From Rhodanobacter sp. OK091 (GTDB taxonomy: Bacteria; Pseudomonadota; Gammaproteobacteria; Xanthomonadales; Rhodanobacteraceae), in assembly GCF_900142825.1 (NCBI RefSeq), contig NZ_FRCH01000002.1:744001-808000 (forward strand): a stretch of 64,000 nt of DNA. Direction: 5' to 3'. Below the pieces are notes generated by a model. The model did not search any database, was not told where the DNA came from, and saw only the letters and a list, made by a program, of their open reading frames with translations. Below are positions 36,575 through 44,292 of this stretch, one piece after another. A program made the position numbers and the translations under genes. Position 1 is the stretch's first letter. Each line of letters starts with the position of its first letter.

Positions 36575-36780
36575 GGCCCGCGTGTGGCTTGTTGGAGAAA
36601 CCTCTGGAAAGATCGGCTTCCAGGCTGAATGATGTATGTGACGGAAATTCGGCAAAAGCCGTGGTGGGGCAGAGCGCCCGTGATGCGGATCGATGCAACG
36701 GGGGAAGCATTCGGCAGAGGAGCGCCGATGCCTGCTACGACGTCGGACCTGGAAAACATTTTGAAGCAGCGAGGAGCACG

Positions 36781-37767
36781 ATGGTCGAGGCGGCGACAAG
36801 TCTAGGTATCGATGAGTTGCATACTTATTGGGCATGCGTATGCGCGCCGGGATCCGCTGCGCCGCTACCGCAGGATGTCGTGAAGACGTTGCTGGCTGGC
36901 TTGCGTCTCAACGTGCTGGAAACCCTGCGCTATCTGCATCAGAAGCAGCCGAGTTATGCGCAATTCGAAGCCTGGGTAGGGGAGCGCAATGGCGGCGAGC
37001 TGAAAGAAGTCTCGCTGACTCGCTTGCGGCGTGCACTGGCAGGCGAGGCCGTCGGCGCCGAAGTCGGCAATCTCGAGCGTGTCGAAGGCCTGACCGCCGA
37101 CGACCTTGCACACTGGCACGAGCATGGCTATGTCGTCCTGCGCAACGCGATCAGTTCGGAAGCGGCGGAAACCGCAGAGAGGGCCATCTACGATTTTCTA
37201 GGGATGGACCGCGACGACCCGGAGTCCTGGTATCGCGAATCGCTGGGCCATTCCATCTGGGTGCCGCTACTGCGGCATCCGGCACTGGTGGCCAATCGTC
37301 GCGCGCCACGTATTCATAAGGCCCATGCTCAACTGTGGGGGCGCGAGGATCTTTGGGTAACCATCGACCAGGGCGGATTCAATCCGCCGGAGCGCAAAAA
37401 CTGGCCGTTTCCCGGACCGCATTTGCACTGGGATGCCACGCTCGCCGAACCGCACCGCCTTGAATTGCAGGGCATCGTGTATCTCGCCGACGTCGATGAG
37501 GACCAGGGGGCATTCAGCTGCGTGCCGGGCTTTCATCGCACGCTGAAGCAGTGGCTGAAAAGCGTTCCCGCCGGCGTGAATGCGAGTGATCACGCGCGGC
37601 GCACCTTGACGATGAAGCCGATCGCCGCAAAGCGCGGCGACATGATCATCTGGCATCACCTGCTGCCGCATGGCAGCAGTCCGAACCGTGCACAGCGACC
37701 ACGCGTCGTGCAATACATGTCGCTACGACCGACGCGCTTTGCCTACACCGAGGAATGGAAGTCTTGA
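36781..37767 (+). CDS. Phytanoyl-CoA dioxygenase (PhyH)-family Fe(II)/2-oxoglutarate oxygenase
   Basis: 328 residues from ATG 36781 with GAGGAG upstream; longer in-frame starts lack a ribosome site. The first 110 residues are a helical extension. The PhyH domain begins near LTADDLAHWHEHGYVVLRNAIS. Iron ligands are HWD (His216, Asp218) and a distal His297 in LLPHGSSPN, followed by an arginine (RPRVVQY) suited to bind 2-oxoglutarate. It hydroxylates an unknown small molecule. It lies 206 bases after the GH2 gene in the same direction and may or may not belong to that locus. Confidence 0.88.
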   Translation: MVEAATSLGIDELHTYWACVCAPGSAAPLPQDVVKTLLAGLRLNVLETLRYLHQKQPSYAQFEAWVGERNGGELKEVSLTRLRRALAGEAVGAEVGNLERVEGLTADDLAHWHEHGYVVLRNAISSEAAETAERAIYDFLGMDRDDPESWYRESLGHSIWVPLLRHPALVANRRAPRIHKAHAQLWGREDLWVTIDQGGFNPPERKNWPFPGPHLHWDATLAEPHRLELQGIVYLADVDEDQGAFSCVPGFHRTLKQWLKSVPAGVNASDHARRTLTMKPIAAKRGDMIIWHHLLPHGSSPNRAQRPRVVQYMSLRPTRFAYTEEWKS

Positions 37768-38078
37768 TGGCGATGGCTTGGCCACTCGACTCTGATTCCC
37801 GACGTTTTCAGATTCCGGGATTCCGGGATTGATGCAGCAACTCGACATCACGCCGCAGCAACCCTGACATCGAGACAGCTTCGCAAGAGAGCGCACGGCA
37901 TCGATTCTTTACAAGCTCAGGTAAAGGCTGTACATACGCCAGGCAGGCCACTCGCACAGGGGCGACGGTCGCATCAATCGAATGTAGCCCGATGGGGGCG
38001 CGCGCAGGCTGGTAGGCATGGATTGCTTTACGCGCGCGTACAGCACCCGGTCGGCTTGCGCGCAAACAAGGGACTGGC
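37768..38078. other. Intergenic region before the 1199-residue gene
   Basis: 311 bases without a gene. Contains a tandem ATTCCGGG ATTCCGGG at 37812-37827 and presumably the promoter of the two-gene unit downstream. No convincing -35/-10 pair or operator was recognised. Confidence 0.4.
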
Positions 38079-41000
38079 ATGGACCGGACGCGCAACGCTG
38101 TAGAACGCCATCTGCTGCACTTCGACGCGTCCAAGGACAAGCCGGGCGATCGGGTTCTCACTTATTACTCCGGCATGACGCCGCATCGGGTGCATGCGCA
38201 TACGCGCTCGACGCTGGCCGATGCACGTGTCGGCAATCCGCTGCTGCAAAAATTGCCCGACGCGCAGTTCAGTCATTACCTCGAAGTCGATCTGCCTTCG
38301 GACTCGGTGATGATGACTTACCTGGCGCGCGCCACCGAGGTCGACGGCTCGCCCACGGAGGATTTCCTCTCGCTGGCCATCCACGTGCCGCGCGCCGGCC
38401 GGCGCGAATGCGTGGCCAGGCGAGGCCTGCTGGCTGCAGGCGTGGACGATATCCACCCGAAGCTGGCGTGGCTGCTGGGCGACGATGCCGCCGATGGCGC
38501 CAGCGTGCATTCACTGCTGCGCGCAGGGCGCATCGAACCGGACGCCCTGCATGACCTGATCGATCCTTTTGAAACCGCATCGACGCTGCTTTTCCAGCAT
38601 CCCGGACTGATCAACCTCAACAGCGACAACGGTGGCGAGATCCCGGCCATCATCCTGCAGCAGTGCGTCGGCCGTGCCCTGCGGCTTCGTGGACGCAGCC
38701 TGCTGAACGCGATTCGTGACCTCGGCGCCGACTGGTCCCGGCGCGTTCCGCTGCTCGATGATGGTCAGGTCGTCACCGATGAGGAAGGCACGGTATTCAC
38801 CATCGAGGTGCACGAACGCGTCCGTCGGTTCATGTCCGAACCGATGGGGCTCGCGCTCAAGTATTCCCAGCAGCTCCAGGAGCTCGAAGGGCAGACCTGG
38901 CGCGTGCAGTACGGCAAGACCATCGATGAGCACAAACCGCTTAAAGCTTCCGCCGTCGCCACGCGGCCCCTGCTTCGCGCCGACCAGACGCGCTGGACGC
39001 TGAAGGCGCTAAGCCGGATGAATGGCGTGAGCACCGGTTCGGTGACATTCCAGCCGCCTCGCGAAGGTGGCTGGACCATCAAGGAAACCTGGTCGTCCGA
39101 CGATGCGGTGTCGATGGATGAGGAAACGGTCGCGGCCCTGGTCGAGGGGCGCATGTTCGCCCGCGTGGATACGGCCACGCATGAAGGTGCGTGGATCGGT
39201 ACGTTCGCCGCGCAGGTACTGAAGGACGACGAGACGGCGACATTCACGGCGAAACACCAGAGCAACCGTTCCGGTGCCGATTTCGCGACGGTGGCCCTCT
39301 CGCTGGATGCCTTGCGCCTGGATCTCGAGGTCGACCTGAAGGTGACCTCGAAATCGACGGCCGATGCGCTGGCCAGCGTCAACTTGTTCGTCCGCGAGCC
39401 CAGCGGACTCGAACGCAAAGTATGGAGTGCGCGGCCGACGACCAAGGGGCAGTACGGCAACCTGCGTGTCGACGTCATCAATGAATGGTTGCGCCACCTG
39501 GGTGCGTACGCCGAGTTCTACGACGCCGCCGAGAAGATCATCACGCCGGCAGGCTGGACCTCGAGGATGCCCCTGGACATCGCCCCGGACTTCGACAAGC
39601 ACGCGACGAAGAAATACATCGACGTCCTCGCGCCAGTCGACAACGTCTTCGGTATCCCCCTGGGGCCGATGACCACCACGCTCGACATCCCGGTACCGGC
39701 CGCGGCCGCGTCGGTCAAGCTTTACTGGGGCGGCCTGGGTACGGGCGAGTACGACGACACGGCCTGTGCCTGCGGAATCACCTGCACGGCCGTGCTGGAA
39801 CTGGCCCTTCCCGTGGTCATGCTGATCAACGGCGCATCGCAGAGCAACTCGGGATTCATCAGCAACCTGATGAAGGACCCGAAAGTCCGTTACGGAATTT
39901 ACGCCCTGGGCGCGGCCCTTATCGGCGCGGGGTCCGGAAGCTATATCGGACTGTCCCAGAATCCCGGCAAGGCAGCCGGCACGGTCGCCGTGAAGCTGTT
40001 GCCCGCGCTGGCCAAGTTTGGTCTCAAGAAGCTCTCGATCTACCTCGCTGAAAAAGCAGCCGAGGGCGTGGCCAAGCGATCCATCCCGCTGATCGGGTTG
40101 GCCTTCCTCGCGTTCGATACCGCCGTGACCCTGCTGCAGCTCGGCCAGACCATCGCCGCGGTGGTGCAGTCGCCGTTCTATTACACGACGAAACTGACCC
40201 GCACCTTTGACTTGCGCGGCCGCGTGCTGCCCGATCCGGCATTCAACAAGTTCCCCGACCACCACGACAGGATGGTGGTGCACGTGCTTTACGACGCGGG
40301 CAATGCCTTGCCCGTACAGGAGCAGCGCCTGCCGGCAGAAACCCTGTCCCGTCCGCTGCCGTTCGAGTTTCTCGACATCGCTGCCGGCGGTCGCGTCAAG
40401 GTCATCGTGATCTTCTATGCCGCCAACGGCTGGCAATCGGCGTTCGGCGCGACCTCGTGGATCGACGCGAAGGGAGCGAACGGCAGCGCGACGCTGGACC
40501 TCGATGTGACGGTCAAGAATGCACTGATCCCGCTGTCGAAAGATTCGGTGTATCAGCACCGGCAGGCGCTCGCCTATGAAGGCGGCAAGCACCGTTGGAG
40601 ACAGGGGCCGGCGCCCACCACGACCATTATCACGGTGTCTCCGGACGCCGGGCATCGCCTGCTGTCCCTGGGCGGCATCACCGTGGCGCAACGTCCGGCC
40701 ATGCTCGCCTACTCCTGGCAGGCGACCGGCTTGAACCTGGCGCGCGACCGGCCGGGCGCGCGCAGCGACGAGGCCATGTTCGCGATGCAGAACGTTTCGC
40801 TGCTGGAGGACCCCGAAGCCGGCTGCGCGGTGACCCCGGTGGGTTTCACGCTTCCCTGCGGCATCGCTTATGACATCGGCTCGTCCGAGGACGGCAGCGG
40901 CGCGAACTACTACCTGGATCCGTCGCTCGGCGAGTTCGATCCCGACGAGAACCTTGCCGGCGGCTATCACATCCGGCGCATCGCGTTGTCGCTCGGCGCC

Positions 41001-41678
41001 AAGCCGCGGTTCGAGCCAGGCTCGGCGCAAAGCTGGGGACGTTTTCCGCGTGCGGTCGACGGTTTCCTCGTCCATCCCCAGGGTTATGCCGTCGCGGTCA
41101 GCGCCGACACGTCCAAGTTGTACATCCTGCAATTGCCCAAACAGGCCGGCGAAAACACACGCGCCACGATGGCGAGCATGTATAGCGGGGAAGGGGAGCG
41201 CGTCGGCCTGATGAAGCTGCCCCGCGCGGTCGCCGTGGCGCTGGATGGACGTCTGCTGGTGCTCGAGGAGGGCAACCGCCGCATCCAGTGCTTCGACATT
41301 TCGGGCAATCCCGTGCCGTACTTCAAGCAGGCCGGCAGCAGCGAAAAATCCGCGATCCTGTCGCTGCGCGCAACGTCGGCCCAATCGACCCGGTACCTGG
41401 ATCTTTCGGTCGAGGCGAAAGGCTATGTCTTCGTGCTGGCCTGTGACGAGAACGGCTCGATTCCCGAGCATTACCGGGTCGATATCTACGAGCCCGACGG
41501 CAGCTTCCTGGTCAGCACGCCACGCGTGACGGCGGCCCGGATCGCGGTCGACCTGGCCCGCAGCCTGTACACGCTCAACTGGGAAACCTGGATCGGTGCC
41601 GAGGGCCGTACGGAGCCTTCGGTCAGCATGTGGCTACCGCCGCCGCCAAAGATGCGTGCCGGCAAGGGGAAAAAGTGA
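38079..41678 (+). CDS. Uncharacterised 1199-residue protein with central hydrophobic region and propeller-like C-terminus
   Basis: No family is recognised. No signal peptide. Residues 1-150 are beta-rich with LLHFDASKDKPGD at the start; 150-300 look helical. Residues about 300-560 hold repeated beta strands of immunoglobulin-like character. A cysteine cluster (CACGITC) near 562-570 opens a hydrophobic region with three stretches (near 574-590, GIYALGAALIGAGSGSYIGL at 606-625, IPLIGLAFLAFDTAVTLLQL at about 669-690), which could insert into a membrane. After another beta-rich part, residues from about 990 show NHL/propeller-like blades (LPRAVAVALDGRLLVLEEGNRRIQCFD). The stop overlaps by one base the ATG of the pentapeptide-repeat gene (TGATG), so the two products are almost certainly made together. 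Possible roles include a pore-forming or delivered protein or a surface scaffold; none is proven. Confidence 0.75.
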   Translation: MDRTRNAVERHLLHFDASKDKPGDRVLTYYSGMTPHRVHAHTRSTLADARVGNPLLQKLPDAQFSHYLEVDLPSDSVMMTYLARATEVDGSPTEDFLSLAIHVPRAGRRECVARRGLLAAGVDDIHPKLAWLLGDDAADGASVHSLLRAGRIEPDALHDLIDPFETASTLLFQHPGLINLNSDNGGEIPAIILQQCVGRALRLRGRSLLNAIRDLGADWSRRVPLLDDGQVVTDEEGTVFTIEVHERVRRFMSEPMGLALKYSQQLQELEGQTWRVQYGKTIDEHKPLKASAVATRPLLRADQTRWTLKALSRMNGVSTGSVTFQPPREGGWTIKETWSSDDAVSMDEETVAALVEGRMFARVDTATHEGAWIGTFAAQVLKDDETATFTAKHQSNRSGADFATVALSLDALRLDLEVDLKVTSKSTADALASVNLFVREPSGLERKVWSARPTTKGQYGNLRVDVINEWLRHLGAYAEFYDAAEKIITPAGWTSRMPLDIAPDFDKHATKKYIDVLAPVDNVFGIPLGPMTTTLDIPVPAAAASVKLYWGGLGTGEYDDTACACGITCTAVLELALPVVMLINGASQSNSGFISNLMKDPKVRYGIYALGAALIGAGSGSYIGLSQNPGKAAGTVAVKLLPALAKFGLKKLSIYLAEKAAEGVAKRSIPLIGLAFLAFDTAVTLLQLGQTIAAVVQSPFYYTTKLTRTFDLRGRVLPDPAFNKFPDHHDRMVVHVLYDAGNALPVQEQRLPAETLSRPLPFEFLDIAAGGRVKVIVIFYAANGWQSAFGATSWIDAKGANGSATLDLDVTVKNALIPLSKDSVYQHRQALAYEGGKHRWRQGPAPTTTIITVSPDAGHRLLSLGGITVAQRPAMLAYSWQATGLNLARDRPGARSDEAMFAMQNVSLLEDPEAGCAVTPVGFTLPCGIAYDIGSSEDGSGANYYLDPSLGEFDPDENLAGGYHIRRIALSLGAKPRFEPGSAQSWGRFPRAVDGFLVHPQGYAVAVSADTSKLYILQLPKQAGENTRATMASMYSGEGERVGLMKLPRAVAVALDGRLLVLEEGNRRIQCFDISGNPVPYFKQAGSSEKSAILSLRATSAQSTRYLDLSVEAKGYVFVLACDENGSIPEHYRVDIYEPDGSFLVSTPRVTAARIAVDLARSLYTLNWETWIGAEGRTEPSVSMWLPPPPKMRAGKGKK

Positions 41679-43870
41679 TGTTTATTTTTGAAGGCATCTT
41701 CGGCATCTATCCGTGGGACCAGCCCCAGAACAGTGTCCGCTTCATGTTCTTGGTCGACGCGCAGGCGGAGCGCATGCGCATCTACACGAAATTCGGCTTG
41801 GCGAAGGAGCTCACTTTTCAGGAATTCATGAATCTCATGCCGAGGCCGAACTTGCGCGCCACGGGTGGATTGCTGGCGGCCATGAACGATGCGCAAGGGG
41901 GGCGATTGGCCGAAGGCACGTCGTTGTTCCAGGGCATGGTCGGTGACTCGCTGAAGCTCGGTGCCATGCCTGCATTCGAGTCGGTGGCGACGGGTATCAG
42001 CTCGATCAAGGCATCCCACGAATGCGGCAAATCGGATTTCTCGCCCTTCGGCGGCGTGACGATCGATTTCACCGGCGTCGACTTCTCCGGCGTCCGTTTC
42101 AGGGAAGCCGATTTTTCCCGCGCCATCGTAACGAACACGAACTTCCAGGGCGCGACGTTCGAGGGTTGCCGTTTCGTCGGCGATCAGTTGAAAGGCGTCC
42201 GGCTCAACGGTGCGCGAATCGCCGGGCAGGAATGGAGGGGACTCGATCTCACGGCAACGGTATTCGACGATGCCGTACTGGACGGCACGCAGTTCCACGA
42301 CTGCAAGTTCCCCAGGGCATCGTTCAAGAATGCGAAGATCAACGGGGCCTGGTTCGCTCAGTTGCCGATGGAGAGCACGGTTTTCGACGGGGCTGCCGGG
42401 TCCGCCCTATTTGGCGGATGCGACCTTTCCCGCGCGAGCTTTGTGGGTGCGAAGCTTCCGGGAGCGGGCTATATCACTTCGAAACTCGACGGCGCGTCAT
42501 TCAGGCAGGCCGACCTCAGCGGAGCGCGCTTCGGCGCGGTCGACCCCTATCCCGCGGCGAGCATGGACGGGGTGAATTTCGACGGCATCACCGCGCCGGG
42601 AGCGGTCTTCGTCGGCGCAAGCTTTGCCAGGGCGACCTTCAATGCCGCGAAGCTGGCAGGTGCCGCGTTCAATGGCTGCACGCTGAAGGACATATCGTTC
42701 AAAGGCGCCGAGCTTACCCATGCGAGTTTCGGGCCGCTCGGGAAGTTGGGGCCTGCCAACATCACCGATGTGAATTTCGAAGGAGTGGCCGCGTCGGGCG
42801 CGGTATTCGTGGGTACCAGCCTGACGAAGGCCTCGTTCAAGGGTGCTCGGCTGCAACAAACCGCGTTTGGCGGGGCGGCACTCAAAGAGGTCTCATTCCA
42901 GGATGCGGAGATGGAGGGCGTTTCCTTTAGCCTGGTGTCCGCGGCGGCGGTGCTGGATAAAGTCGACTTCGATAACTCCGGCCTGCAAGGCGCCGATTTT
43001 TCCGGGGTCAATCTGGCCGGCACCGTATCGCACACACGCAAGCCGCGGCTGGGCCGGACCCTCGAGAAGCGCACGCGCCTGGTCAAGGCGAAGTTCAAGA
43101 CGGGCTTCCTCGGTGCCGACTGGTCTTACGTCGACGCGACGGAAGCGACCATTACCGTCGAACTCGTGGGGGAGGTCAGGGGATTCAATGCCTCGTACGC
43201 CATTCTCCCGCAGGTCAGCTTCGCCAACCTCAATCTCCCTGGGGCGAATTTCAGCCACGCCCAGCTGAAGCGCTCGATGTTCAGCAGCTGCATTCTCAAC
43301 GAGGCCAACTTCGGGGAAGCCATCCTGGAGGGCGCCGACTTCACCGAGGCGAAGCTGGAAACAGCAACGTTCGAGAAAGCGGGACTGATGGGCGCGCTCT
43401 TTACCAAAGCCTGGCTGGCGGAGGCGAAATTCAACGGGGCTGTCCTGACCGATGTGAATTTCTCGGGCGCGATGCTCGCCGCCGTCGATTTCAAGACGAT
43501 CCAGGGCCGCAATCTGGCCGGCGTGACATTCTCCACGGCCTTCCTGGTCGGGGCGGTTTTCGCCAACGTCAGCACGTCCAGATCACGGGGCGTCCGCACG
43601 GATTTCTCCTCGGCCTGCCTTGCCGGCGCCGATTTTTCGCAGGCATCGCTCGCGGACGCGATTCTCAGCAATGCGCAACTTTCCTCCGCCGGCGGCAAGA
43701 TCAAAGTCATCAACGTCGTCAAAGGCACGAGCGAAGAATTCGTTTACGAGAAGACCAAGATGGACGCCAATACAACCGGGGCCACCACCACCTGTCCTGA
43801 CGGAAATCTTGGCGCATGCCGTATCGACCAGCTTTACGTGAAGCCAGTACCGGTGGAATGGAGGTACTGA
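41678..43870 (+). CDS. Large pentapeptide-repeat protein coupled to the 1199-residue protein
   Basis: 730 residues from ATG 41678, which overlaps the upstream stop by one base. The first 120 residues form a non-repeat domain (FIFEGIFGIYPWDQPQNSVRFMFL...). Two blocks of A(D/N)LXX-type pentapeptides follow, roughly residues 127-450 and 509-670, separated by a beta-containing insert (LEKRTRLVKAKF...). The motif centre is mostly F or L with small residues (A.F.GA.L.GA.F), predicting a right-handed quadrilateral beta-helix. Residues near 295-345 and 362-412 repeat each other at about 66-residue spacing (VNFDGITAPGAVFVGASF, VNFEGVAASGAVFVGTSL). The C-terminus adds a short non-repeat cap. No signal peptide. 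Function unknown; it may be a partner, chaperone or immunity-like protein of the upstream product. Confidence 0.85.
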   Translation: MFIFEGIFGIYPWDQPQNSVRFMFLVDAQAERMRIYTKFGLAKELTFQEFMNLMPRPNLRATGGLLAAMNDAQGGRLAEGTSLFQGMVGDSLKLGAMPAFESVATGISSIKASHECGKSDFSPFGGVTIDFTGVDFSGVRFREADFSRAIVTNTNFQGATFEGCRFVGDQLKGVRLNGARIAGQEWRGLDLTATVFDDAVLDGTQFHDCKFPRASFKNAKINGAWFAQLPMESTVFDGAAGSALFGGCDLSRASFVGAKLPGAGYITSKLDGASFRQADLSGARFGAVDPYPAASMDGVNFDGITAPGAVFVGASFARATFNAAKLAGAAFNGCTLKDISFKGAELTHASFGPLGKLGPANITDVNFEGVAASGAVFVGTSLTKASFKGARLQQTAFGGAALKEVSFQDAEMEGVSFSLVSAAAVLDKVDFDNSGLQGADFSGVNLAGTVSHTRKPRLGRTLEKRTRLVKAKFKTGFLGADWSYVDATEATITVELVGEVRGFNASYAILPQVSFANLNLPGANFSHAQLKRSMFSSCILNEANFGEAILEGADFTEAKLETATFEKAGLMGALFTKAWLAEAKFNGAVLTDVNFSGAMLAAVDFKTIQGRNLAGVTFSTAFLVGAVFANVSTSRSRGVRTDFSSACLAGADFSQASLADAILSNAQLSSAGGKIKVINVVKGTSEEFVYEKTKMDANTTGATTTCPDGNLGACRIDQLYVKPVPVEWRY

Positions 43871-43951
43871 GCATGGAAGCGTTTCGGCGATCCCTGAATC
43901 GCCTGTTGCGCCGCTGTTTTACGTAGCTTCCTGGAGATGCCCTGATTTTGC

Positions 43952-44044
43952 TCGTCATCCCGGCATCGCGAAACGATATCCGGGACCCGGTGCCTTTGCG
44001 TATCAACGAAAGACACTGGGTTCCCGCTTTCGCGGGAATGACGA
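43952..44044. repeat. REP/MITE-like imperfect inverted repeat
   Basis: Two arms, TCGTCATCCCGG... at the left and ...CGCGGGAATGACGA at the right, are inverted copies with indels enclosing about 20 bases. The CGTCATTCCCGCGAAAGCGGG type of arm is widespread in intergenic repeats of proteobacteria. The rest of the 43871-44292 gap holds nothing recognisable. Confidence 0.7.
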
Positions 44045-44292
44045 AAACAGAGGTCAACCAGAGCATCCCTGGGGCTTCCTTACGTCACACAAGGAAGACG
44101 GGGAAGGTAAGGACAGCGGCGATCATCAGCCATGCCGCTGTCCGTCCGGCGAGGCAAATGGATCGCAGGTTGCGCTGATGCGACGTCCACGCAAGCTCAT
44201 CGAAATTGCGGAGCGCTGTGGAGATTGCCGGTTCCAAACTTCTCGACGTTCTCCAAGCCGTTTGATGGTGCAGCGAGGTCAATCCTTCAAAA

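What the first reader, a model, noticed from the sequence alone, without database searches (positions are those of the whole stretch)
38079..43870. Two-gene system: unassigned 1199-residue protein coupled to a pentapeptide-repeat protein
The genes overlap by one base (TGATG), so the products are made together. The first has no recognisable family, no signal peptide, a central hydrophobic region of about 130 residues (565-695) and a propeller-like C-terminus. The second is a long right-handed beta-helix with its own N-terminal domain. A large, multi-domain, partly hydrophobic protein paired with a repeat protein resembles toxin/partner, contractile-system cargo or surface-assembly pairs. It stands alone among metabolic genes. 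This is the best candidate for an undescribed system here.
Basis: partly seen in the sequence, partly recalled or inferred. Interest (0 to 1): 0.75.

Follow-up and report, generated by a model that had tools for sequence, protein, structure and literature searches.

The report
Conserved pair: giant protein, beta-helix partner
Two neighbouring bacterial genes, one for a giant protein of no named family and one for a rod-shaped repeat protein, were found together at every site we could check, sometimes beside antibiotic-type synthesis genes, so they look like one undescribed working unit whose job is still unknown.

Summary
P1 (38079-41678, 1199 aa) and P2 (41678-43870, 730 aa) overlap by one base and are real, constrained genes. 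P1 matches no Pfam, PHROG or PADLOC family; only an NHL-propeller stretch (1033-1089) and, in relatives, CHRD-like pieces are recognisable. P2 is a pentapeptide beta-helix. The pairing is far beyond chance: 21 P1 loci were found in sampled genomes, 20 could be tested, and all 20 have a pentapeptide gene in the same gene row (one frameshifted). In the host family a P2-tail profile hits all 12 P1 genomes and only 2 of 185 others, weakly. The pair is rare, sporadic and accessory, in four gene arrangements. Relatives add partners: a type I polyketide synthase and glycine-rich proteins (Xenorhabdus plus four related loci, 5 of 5, three of them near-identical), a BPI-like gene between P1 and P2 (2 loci of one genus), an AMP-ligase/PKS (1 Dyella). 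No contractile-system spike gene lies within 10 kb of P1. Best reading: an undescribed multi-protein complex, P1 a membrane-active body, P2 a rod with an exchangeable head, tied to inter-organism chemistry. The mechanism is inferred and confidence in it is low.

The parts
37819..38078 (+). upstream leader conserved with the Dyella kyungheensis copy; start of the conserved cassette block
   Evidence: blastn block 37819-43893 at 85% to L014, no match over 36577-37818; no sigma-70-like site found
38079..41678 (+). P1, 1199 aa, unnamed family: N-terminal region with conserved His, hydrophobic middle, NHL stretch near the end
39072..39428 (+). P1 residues about 332-450: region aligned with the parts of three relatives that hit CHRD; the window protein itself has no CHRD hit and the limits are approximate
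   Evidence: CHRD pieces at 346-389, 399-441 and 420-485 of L032, L031 and L033; alignment
39759..40145 (+). P1 residues 561-689: hydrophobic region with two segments over the threshold (561-587, 668-689) and a Gly-rich stretch near 603-626
41175..41345 (+). P1 residues 1033-1089: NHL propeller repeats
   Evidence: phmmer and profile hits to TRIM71/Thin NHL domains
41678..43870 (+). P2, 730 aa pentapeptide-repeat protein
   Evidence: PF00805 2.1e-69; model pLDDT 77; PDB fold matches HetL, Qnr, MfpA
41678..42052 (+). P2 N-terminal non-repeat head, residues 1-125; relatives carry other heads (LamG in G1227)
43589..43867 (+). P2 C-terminal tail with invariant T...T-x-CP...G-x-C motif, in the host family strong only in P1-bearing genomes
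   Evidence: alignment A5 and genome search

Best explanation
SHOWN: P1 and P2 are one co-inherited, accessory gene unit. P1 is a conserved family over its full length; P2 is a pentapeptide beta-helix with a C-terminal Cys motif and an N-terminal head that differs between lineages. INFERRED: the two products form a complex made in the cytosol (by eye neither start looks like a signal peptide). P1 is the membrane-active body: hydrophobic segments between other regions could insert into a membrane, while the NHL stretch binds a partner, perhaps P2. P2 is a rigid rod that presents an exchangeable recognition head. The complex acts on other organisms (competitor, insect or other eukaryote) and in several lineages is made together with a polyketide or lipopeptide product, glycine-rich proteins, or a BPI-like lipid-binding protein. 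How it leaves the cell is unknown.
For: Pairing in 20 of 20 testable P1 loci and P2-tail profile in 12 of 12 P1 genomes against 2 weak hits in 185 others. Sporadic, accessory distribution: 12 of 197 family genomes, 1 of 17 in the own genus; present on a Xenorhabdus (insect pathogen, recalled) megaplasmid near transposase genes. Hydrophobic segments at alignable places in relatives. P2 heads differ between lineages, one a LamG lectin-type domain. dN/dS of P2 is about 2.7 times that of P1. A PKS lies downstream of the gene row, within about 5 kb, in 5 of 5 Xenorhabdus/f183 loci, and an AMP-ligase/PKS about 3 kb beyond P2 in G040. BPI/TULIP-type gene between P1 and P2 in G641 and G1298.
Against: No toxin, adhesin or secretion family is matched; no catalytic motif was found; no usable structure of P1 was obtained (pLDDT 29). 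Apart from P1, P2, the glycine-rich genes and the PKS, the only gene family found in three loci is one whose L031 member is an AraC-type regulator; no exporter or immunity gene recurs, but most neighbours were not named. Relatives' gene rows differ, which a single fixed machine would not predict. The five PKS loci are not independent: the Xenorhabdus, G839 and G1067 P1 copies are 92-98% identical. The hydrophobic middle could equally be a lipid-binding or buried core; a strict GxxxGxxxG occurs in the window protein (616-624) but is not conserved.
Confidence: 0.33

Rival explanations
1. Lipid or polyketide handling: P1/P2 (with BPI-like and glycine-rich partners) bind, sequester, transport or give self-protection against a PKS/NRPS product inside the producer.
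For: PKS near the pair in 6 of 20 testable loci; P1 genomes are richer in type I PKS domains: 8 of 12 with two or more PF16197 hits against 11 of 95 without P1, Fisher p 7.5e-5; BPI-like gene between P1 and P2; a pentapeptide protein is the proposed resistance gene in the Photorhabdus speirobactin operon (passages of PMC12406682).
Against: 14 of 20 loci show no PKS nearby in the DNA seen (G078, G1227 and G028 lie on contigs of 8, 16 and 25 kb), including the window, whose first PKS hit lies 37.6 kb beyond P2. G067, G094 and G1227 carry the pair with no PF16197 hit at 1e-8. The PKS-richness test does not correct for genome size, and with one or more hits it is 10 of 12 against 50 of 95, p 0.06. 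P2 is 582-915 aa where complete, against 251 aa for the speirobactin protein, and scores below the Qnr cut-off.
Confidence: 0.27
2. Structural assembly: P1 and P2, with glycine-rich and collagen-like proteins where present, build an extracellular or intracellular filament, coat or granule.
For: Beta-helix, propeller and glycine-rich repeat proteins are typical building blocks (general knowledge); nine glycine-rich X419-type genes in five loci, up to three copies in one; P2 length varies freely.
Against: No sorting signal or autotransporter part was matched; the glycine-rich genes were found only in the Xenorhabdus/f183 loci; P1 has a hydrophobic middle.
Confidence: 0.22
3. Cargo or adaptor of a contractile injection system (T6SS, eCIS).
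For: Pentapeptide proteins serve as T6SS accessory proteins in Burkholderia glumae (abstract of PMC8747328); a glycine zipper is needed for translocation of a T6SS effector (abstract of PMC10240207); in G839 a weak spike-domain hit lies about 6 kb from P2.
Against: No spike domain within 10 kb of P1 in any of 20 genomes searched; three of them (G641, G1298 and the 71%-complete G715) have no PF04717 hit at 1e-5.
Confidence: 0.05
4. Chance neighbours with unrelated functions.
For: In the window the pair lies in a variable region downstream of a glycosidase operon.
Against: 20 of 20 linkage across Rhodanobacteraceae, Xenorhabdus/f183 and f216, with changed gene order.
Confidence: 0.01

Closest known systems
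Pentapeptide-repeat proteins (HetL, Qnr, MfpA, AlbG, Alr5209)
   Same: P2 has the same repeat and right-handed beta-helix fold; it scores over the NCBIfam Alr5209 cut-off (136 against 125)
   Different: P2 is about three times longer, has its own head and a Cys-motif tail, was always found with P1, and fails the Qnr, MfpA and HetL cut-offs
NHL-repeat propellers (TRIM71, Thin)
   Same: P1 residues 1033-1089
   Different: only this stretch of 1199 residues matches
Pentapeptide self-resistance proteins in NRPS/PKS clusters (speirobactin gene E; AlbG)
   Same: pentapeptide gene near a synthase in 6 of 20 loci
   Different: much larger, always with P1, and mostly without a synthase nearby
T6SS DUF2169/pentapeptide accessory proteins
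   Same: pentapeptide protein beside a large partner
   Different: no spike gene within 10 kb of P1 and P1 matches no Pfam family
MoxR-vWA ternary conflict systems with pentapeptide or propeller effectors (PMC7159879, passages seen)
   Same: same kinds of repeat modules
   Different: P1 and P2 match no Pfam MoxR or vWA model; neighbours were not searched for these genes

Membership tests
Pentapeptide-repeat protein (PF00805) | tandem pentapeptide repeats over the curated cut-off | tested here: met
   P2: 228.9 bits against cut-off 20.2, 15 stretches
Pentapeptide-repeat protein (PF00805) | right-handed beta-helix | tested here: met
   AlphaFold2 pLDDT mostly 75-95 over about 130-440 and 510-730; Foldseek top hit HetL 4.5e-10
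Alr5209 family (NF052603) | score over NCBIfam cut-off | tested here: met
   136 against 125 bits; but the model has 113 positions and matches seven repeat stretches of a 730-aa protein, so this says little beyond 'pentapeptide repeats'
Qnr/MfpA gyrase-protecting proteins | score over NCBIfam cut-off | tested here: not met
   109.3 against 240 for Qnr; 74.4 against 360 for MfpA
Qnr/MfpA gyrase-protecting proteins | strongly acidic DNA-like surface | tested here: inconclusive
   P2 pI 6.3 overall, 4.7 for residues 480-670
NHL-repeat family | NHL repeats forming a propeller | tested here: inconclusive
   P1 1033-1089 matches PDB NHL domains, but P1 has no Pfam NHL hit and no usable model
CHRD-domain protein (PF07452) | CHRD domain over cut-off | tested here: inconclusive
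   window P1 no hit; L031, L032, L033 over cut-off in pieces, L030 not at 0.001
T6SS/eCIS cargo | VgrG/gpV spike or similar gene in the neighbourhood | tested here: not met
   0 of 20 genomes within 10 kb of P1; nearest 11 kb, about 6 kb from P2, in G839
Known anti-phage system | match in PADLOC-DB | tested here: not met
   no match for P1, P2 or five Xenorhabdus genes
Phage-borne protein | P1 in phage collections | tested here: not met
   no tblastn match in 50,697 phage records; none confirmed in IMG/VR with two peptide patterns; no PHROG
Secreted pore-forming or injected toxin pair | export, membrane insertion or toxicity | not testable with these tools
   needs expression and assay
Self-resistance gene of a PKS/NRPS cluster | lies inside or beside a synthase cluster | tested here: inconclusive
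   6 of 20 testable loci; not the window

The most novel reading that the evidence does not exclude
P1 and P2 are the core of an undescribed protein-lipid delivery particle: P1 is a membrane-active body that carries a PKS- or lipopeptide-type lipid (loaded with help of BPI-like or glycine-rich partners), and the P2 rod with its exchangeable head aims it at other cells. That would be a bacterial system which delivers a small molecule with a dedicated protein carrier.
Probability: 0.1. Interest if true: 0.85.

Novelty: categorically new. Interest (0 to 1): 0.52.

Why it matters
A large protein family without a Pfam, PHROG, PADLOC or significant NCBIfam match travels with a pentapeptide protein across distant Pseudomonadota and in some of them sits beside polyketide synthases and lipid-binding proteins. 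Pentapeptide proteins other than gyrase protectors are poorly understood (general knowledge), so a fixed partner gives a direct way to test what a long one does. The rating 'categorically new' rests on no known whole system fitting the pair in the tests tried, not on a shown mechanism; if function turns out toxin-like it would drop to a new variant of a known kind.

Tried and rejected
P1 structure: AlphaFold2 on the window and three Dyella sequences gave mean pLDDT 29 and pTM 0.22; it was not used for any search. Contractile-system cargo: spike-gene survey negative. Anti-phage system: PADLOC negative. Phage or plasmid cargo: no phage hit; one plasmid hit, the Xenorhabdus bovienii megaplasmid. 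P2 as a Qnr-type protein: below cut-offs. P2 heads as beta-trefoil (a guess from memory): PDB profile searches of two head types found one hit at E 3.3 and none; Pfam gave weak CBM_5_12 (0.008) and Fascin (0.09) hits in one relative; not claimed. A weak FtsH-ternary-domain hit to one head (0.08) was left as chance. Seven class-level hits outside the own genome matched the NHL stretch only and are not counted as P1. The two weak P2-tail hits in P1-less genomes were looked at: G057 is a short pentapeptide protein; G037 is a 132-aa ORF of doubtful reality in a fragmented genome. Pfam LD_SV2, over its cut-off in P2, was taken as a repeat match. Papers: ten searches, five of which returned no paper, found no description of the pair in titles, abstracts or listings; I opened four papers (passages or abstract only); subscription papers are not held. 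An early simple ORF picker mis-called several genes on the wrong strand; searches replaced it, and the L050 genes were still mis-called and were placed by tblastn.
Full report
OBSERVATION. The same one-base overlap fits four relatives (L027, L037, and L035 and L036 if the ATG aligned with the window's is the start); L028 overlaps by four bases, L029, L032, L033 and L034 have gaps of 12-41 bases, and the starts of L030 and L031 are uncertain. Both are real, constrained genes, and P2 changes faster.

P1. No Pfam family at E up to 1, no PHROG at 0.01, no PADLOC at 0.1, one NCBIfam hit at 0.098 to an NHL protein. In the PDB, phmmer finds NHL propellers at 1033-1089 (8.3e-13), and a 13-row family profile finds the same and otherwise only hits at 0.2 or worse outside NHL proteins. 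Four of 13 family members, not the window, have a Pfam CHRD hit at 0.1; of four rescanned, L031, L032 and L033 pass the cut-off, in pieces at 346-485, and L030 has none at 0.001. A 16-row alignment shows conserved His at 41, 66, 102 (15 of 16 rows, the other row being cut at its start by my gene caller) and 174 and 999 (16 of 16). Hydrophobic segments over a Kyte-Doolittle threshold of 1.6 lie at 561-587 and 668-689 in the window and near 603-626 in several relatives. The AlphaFold model failed (pLDDT 29), so domain limits outside these hits are approximate.

P2. Pentapeptide repeats with E 2.1e-69. The model is good over most of 125-730 and poor over 1-105 and around 455-500; Foldseek returns HetL, Qnr, MfpA and AlbG. 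The tail has an invariant T...T-x-CP...G-x-C pattern in 11 Rhodanobacteraceae copies (the frameshifted G028 copy was left out of that alignment). The N-terminal head differs: in G1227 it is a LamG domain (3e-12), in Xenorhabdus and four f183 copies another type, in three Rhodanobacteraceae a third.

PAIRING. P1 was found in 12 of 197 host-family genomes, own included, and in 1 of 17 of the own genus. The family is Rhodanobacteraceae, from Dyella kyungheensis. A class sample of 369 gave no full P1 apart from the own genome. A phylum sample of 398 gave 5 with the own; the family of G877 (f183, Enterobacteriaceae-like by its small endosymbiont-type genomes, my inference) 4 of 295, two of them already seen; the family of G641 (f216) 3 of 100; the class of G641 1 of 190, G641 itself. 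One plasmid record, Xenorhabdus bovienii NZ_FO818638.1, has it too. That makes 21 loci: 12 in the host family, 4 in f183, 3 in f216, the plasmid, and G715. G715 is cut by its contig end and cannot be tested. In all other 20 a pentapeptide gene lies in the same row; in G028 it is frameshifted. The loci are not all independent: the Xenorhabdus, G839 and G1067 copies are 92-98% identical, the window and G064 copies 91%. Four arrangements were seen: P1-P2; P1-X419-(X217)-P2 with X419 a glycine-rich protein; P1-BPI-like-P2; and P2-P1-P1 in G987. The reverse test: a profile of the P2 tail hits 14 of 197 family genomes, namely all 12 P1 genomes (5.5e-24 or better) and two others at 3.7e-7 and 2.8e-4; these two were examined and are not convincing P2 genes. 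P2-type genes outside the host family were not searched for in P1-less genomes.

SETTING. In the window the conserved block is 37819-43893. A TonB/GH92/GH2 block upstream ends at 36576-36588 both in Dyella kyungheensis and in three P1-less congeners. The pair therefore sits in a variable region behind a conserved glycosidase operon. Few neighbours recur: besides P1, P2, the glycine-rich genes and PKS genes, one family occurs in three loci, its L031 member an AraC-type regulator. In Xenorhabdus, G839, G877, G1067 and G987 (5 of 5) a type I PKS lies downstream of the gene row; in G1067 about 4 kb of further glycine-rich and pentapeptide-like pieces lie between. In G040 an AMP-binding enzyme (FAAL-type by my reading) and a KS-bearing frame of over 5,600 codons begin about 3 kb beyond P2. 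In G641 and G1298, one genus, a 595-aa protein with a BPI/LBP C-terminal domain (1.6e-8; LBP structure 5.4e-5) lies between P1 and P2. The own genome has a PKS/NRPS frame whose first KS-associated hit is 37.6 kb beyond P2 (G000:C1:825463). Across 107 family genomes, 8 of 12 with P1 and 11 of 95 without have two or more PKS domain hits (Fisher p 7.5e-5, uncorrected for genome size); for one or more hits it is 10 of 12 against 50 of 95 (p 0.06).

CONTRACTILE SYSTEMS. PF04717 spike domains occur in 17 of 20 P1 genomes (the X. bovienii genome was not searched). On the P1 contig they occur in eight: in G839 about 11 kb from P1 and 6 kb from P2 (weak, 1.7e-7, on the far side of the PKS), and more than 100 kb away in G000, G002, G036, G040, G094, G987 and G1067. 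This gives no support to a cargo role.

MECHANISM. Shown: gene unit, co-inheritance, fold of P2, the NHL stretch, hydrophobic segments, PKS and lipid-binding neighbours in some lineages. Inferred: complex formation, membrane insertion, recognition by the P2 head, and action on other organisms. The two leading readings, outward-acting complex (0.33) and handling or self-protection for a lipid or polyketide (0.27), are close and may both be partly true.

NOVELTY. No library searched names P1, and ten paper searches found no description of the pair (listed in Tried and rejected); only open-licence papers were searched. I rate it categorically new because no known whole system fitted in the tests made (P2 is a member of the pentapeptide fold family), with the caution that function is unproved.

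Noticed in passing
window 43952-44047: A roughly 95-base element about 80 bases beyond P2 folds into a multi-stem structure (window 43940-44060: z -5.7 against shuffles); a 16-base core pattern occurs once in the window with up to 2 mismatches and no Rfam family matches. It may be a mobile intergenic repeat.
   Followed up: partly
G000:C1:825463-851625 (outside the window): An open frame of 10,771 codons with seven PKS KS-associated hits: a large NRPS/PKS-type gene in the same genome, first hit 37.6 kb beyond P2.
   Followed up: no
L017:8268-9527, L049 (three copies), L048, L064, L065: A family of mostly 370-445-aa proteins with a conserved N-terminal half and a GNGGNGG-rich C-terminal half; the members scanned have no Pfam or NCBIfam match, except a weak collagen-repeat match in one.
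   Followed up: partly
L067:8059-9846 and L050:7529-9310: A bacterial BPI/LBP-like (TULIP) gene lies between P1 and P2 in two genomes of one genus.
   Followed up: partly
L031:4388-6569: The P2 gene of G028 is split by a frameshift while its P1 frame is intact as called; whether this is sequencing error or decay is unknown.
   Followed up: no
L065:7312-14309: G987 has two P1-type genes in tandem, the second short (830 codons as called; the search gives an 878-codon frame).
   Followed up: no
L084:1456-1854 (minus): A short ORF in G037 beside a flavin-dependent-oxidoreductase-like gene (by eye) ends in a motif like the P2 tail (3.7e-7); it may be chance or a separate use of the tail.
   Followed up: partly
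window 36589-37767: A phytanoyl-CoA dioxygenase-type gene (PF05721) lies between the conserved glycosidase operon and the cassette; blastn finds nothing like it at that place in Dyella kyungheensis.
   Followed up: no
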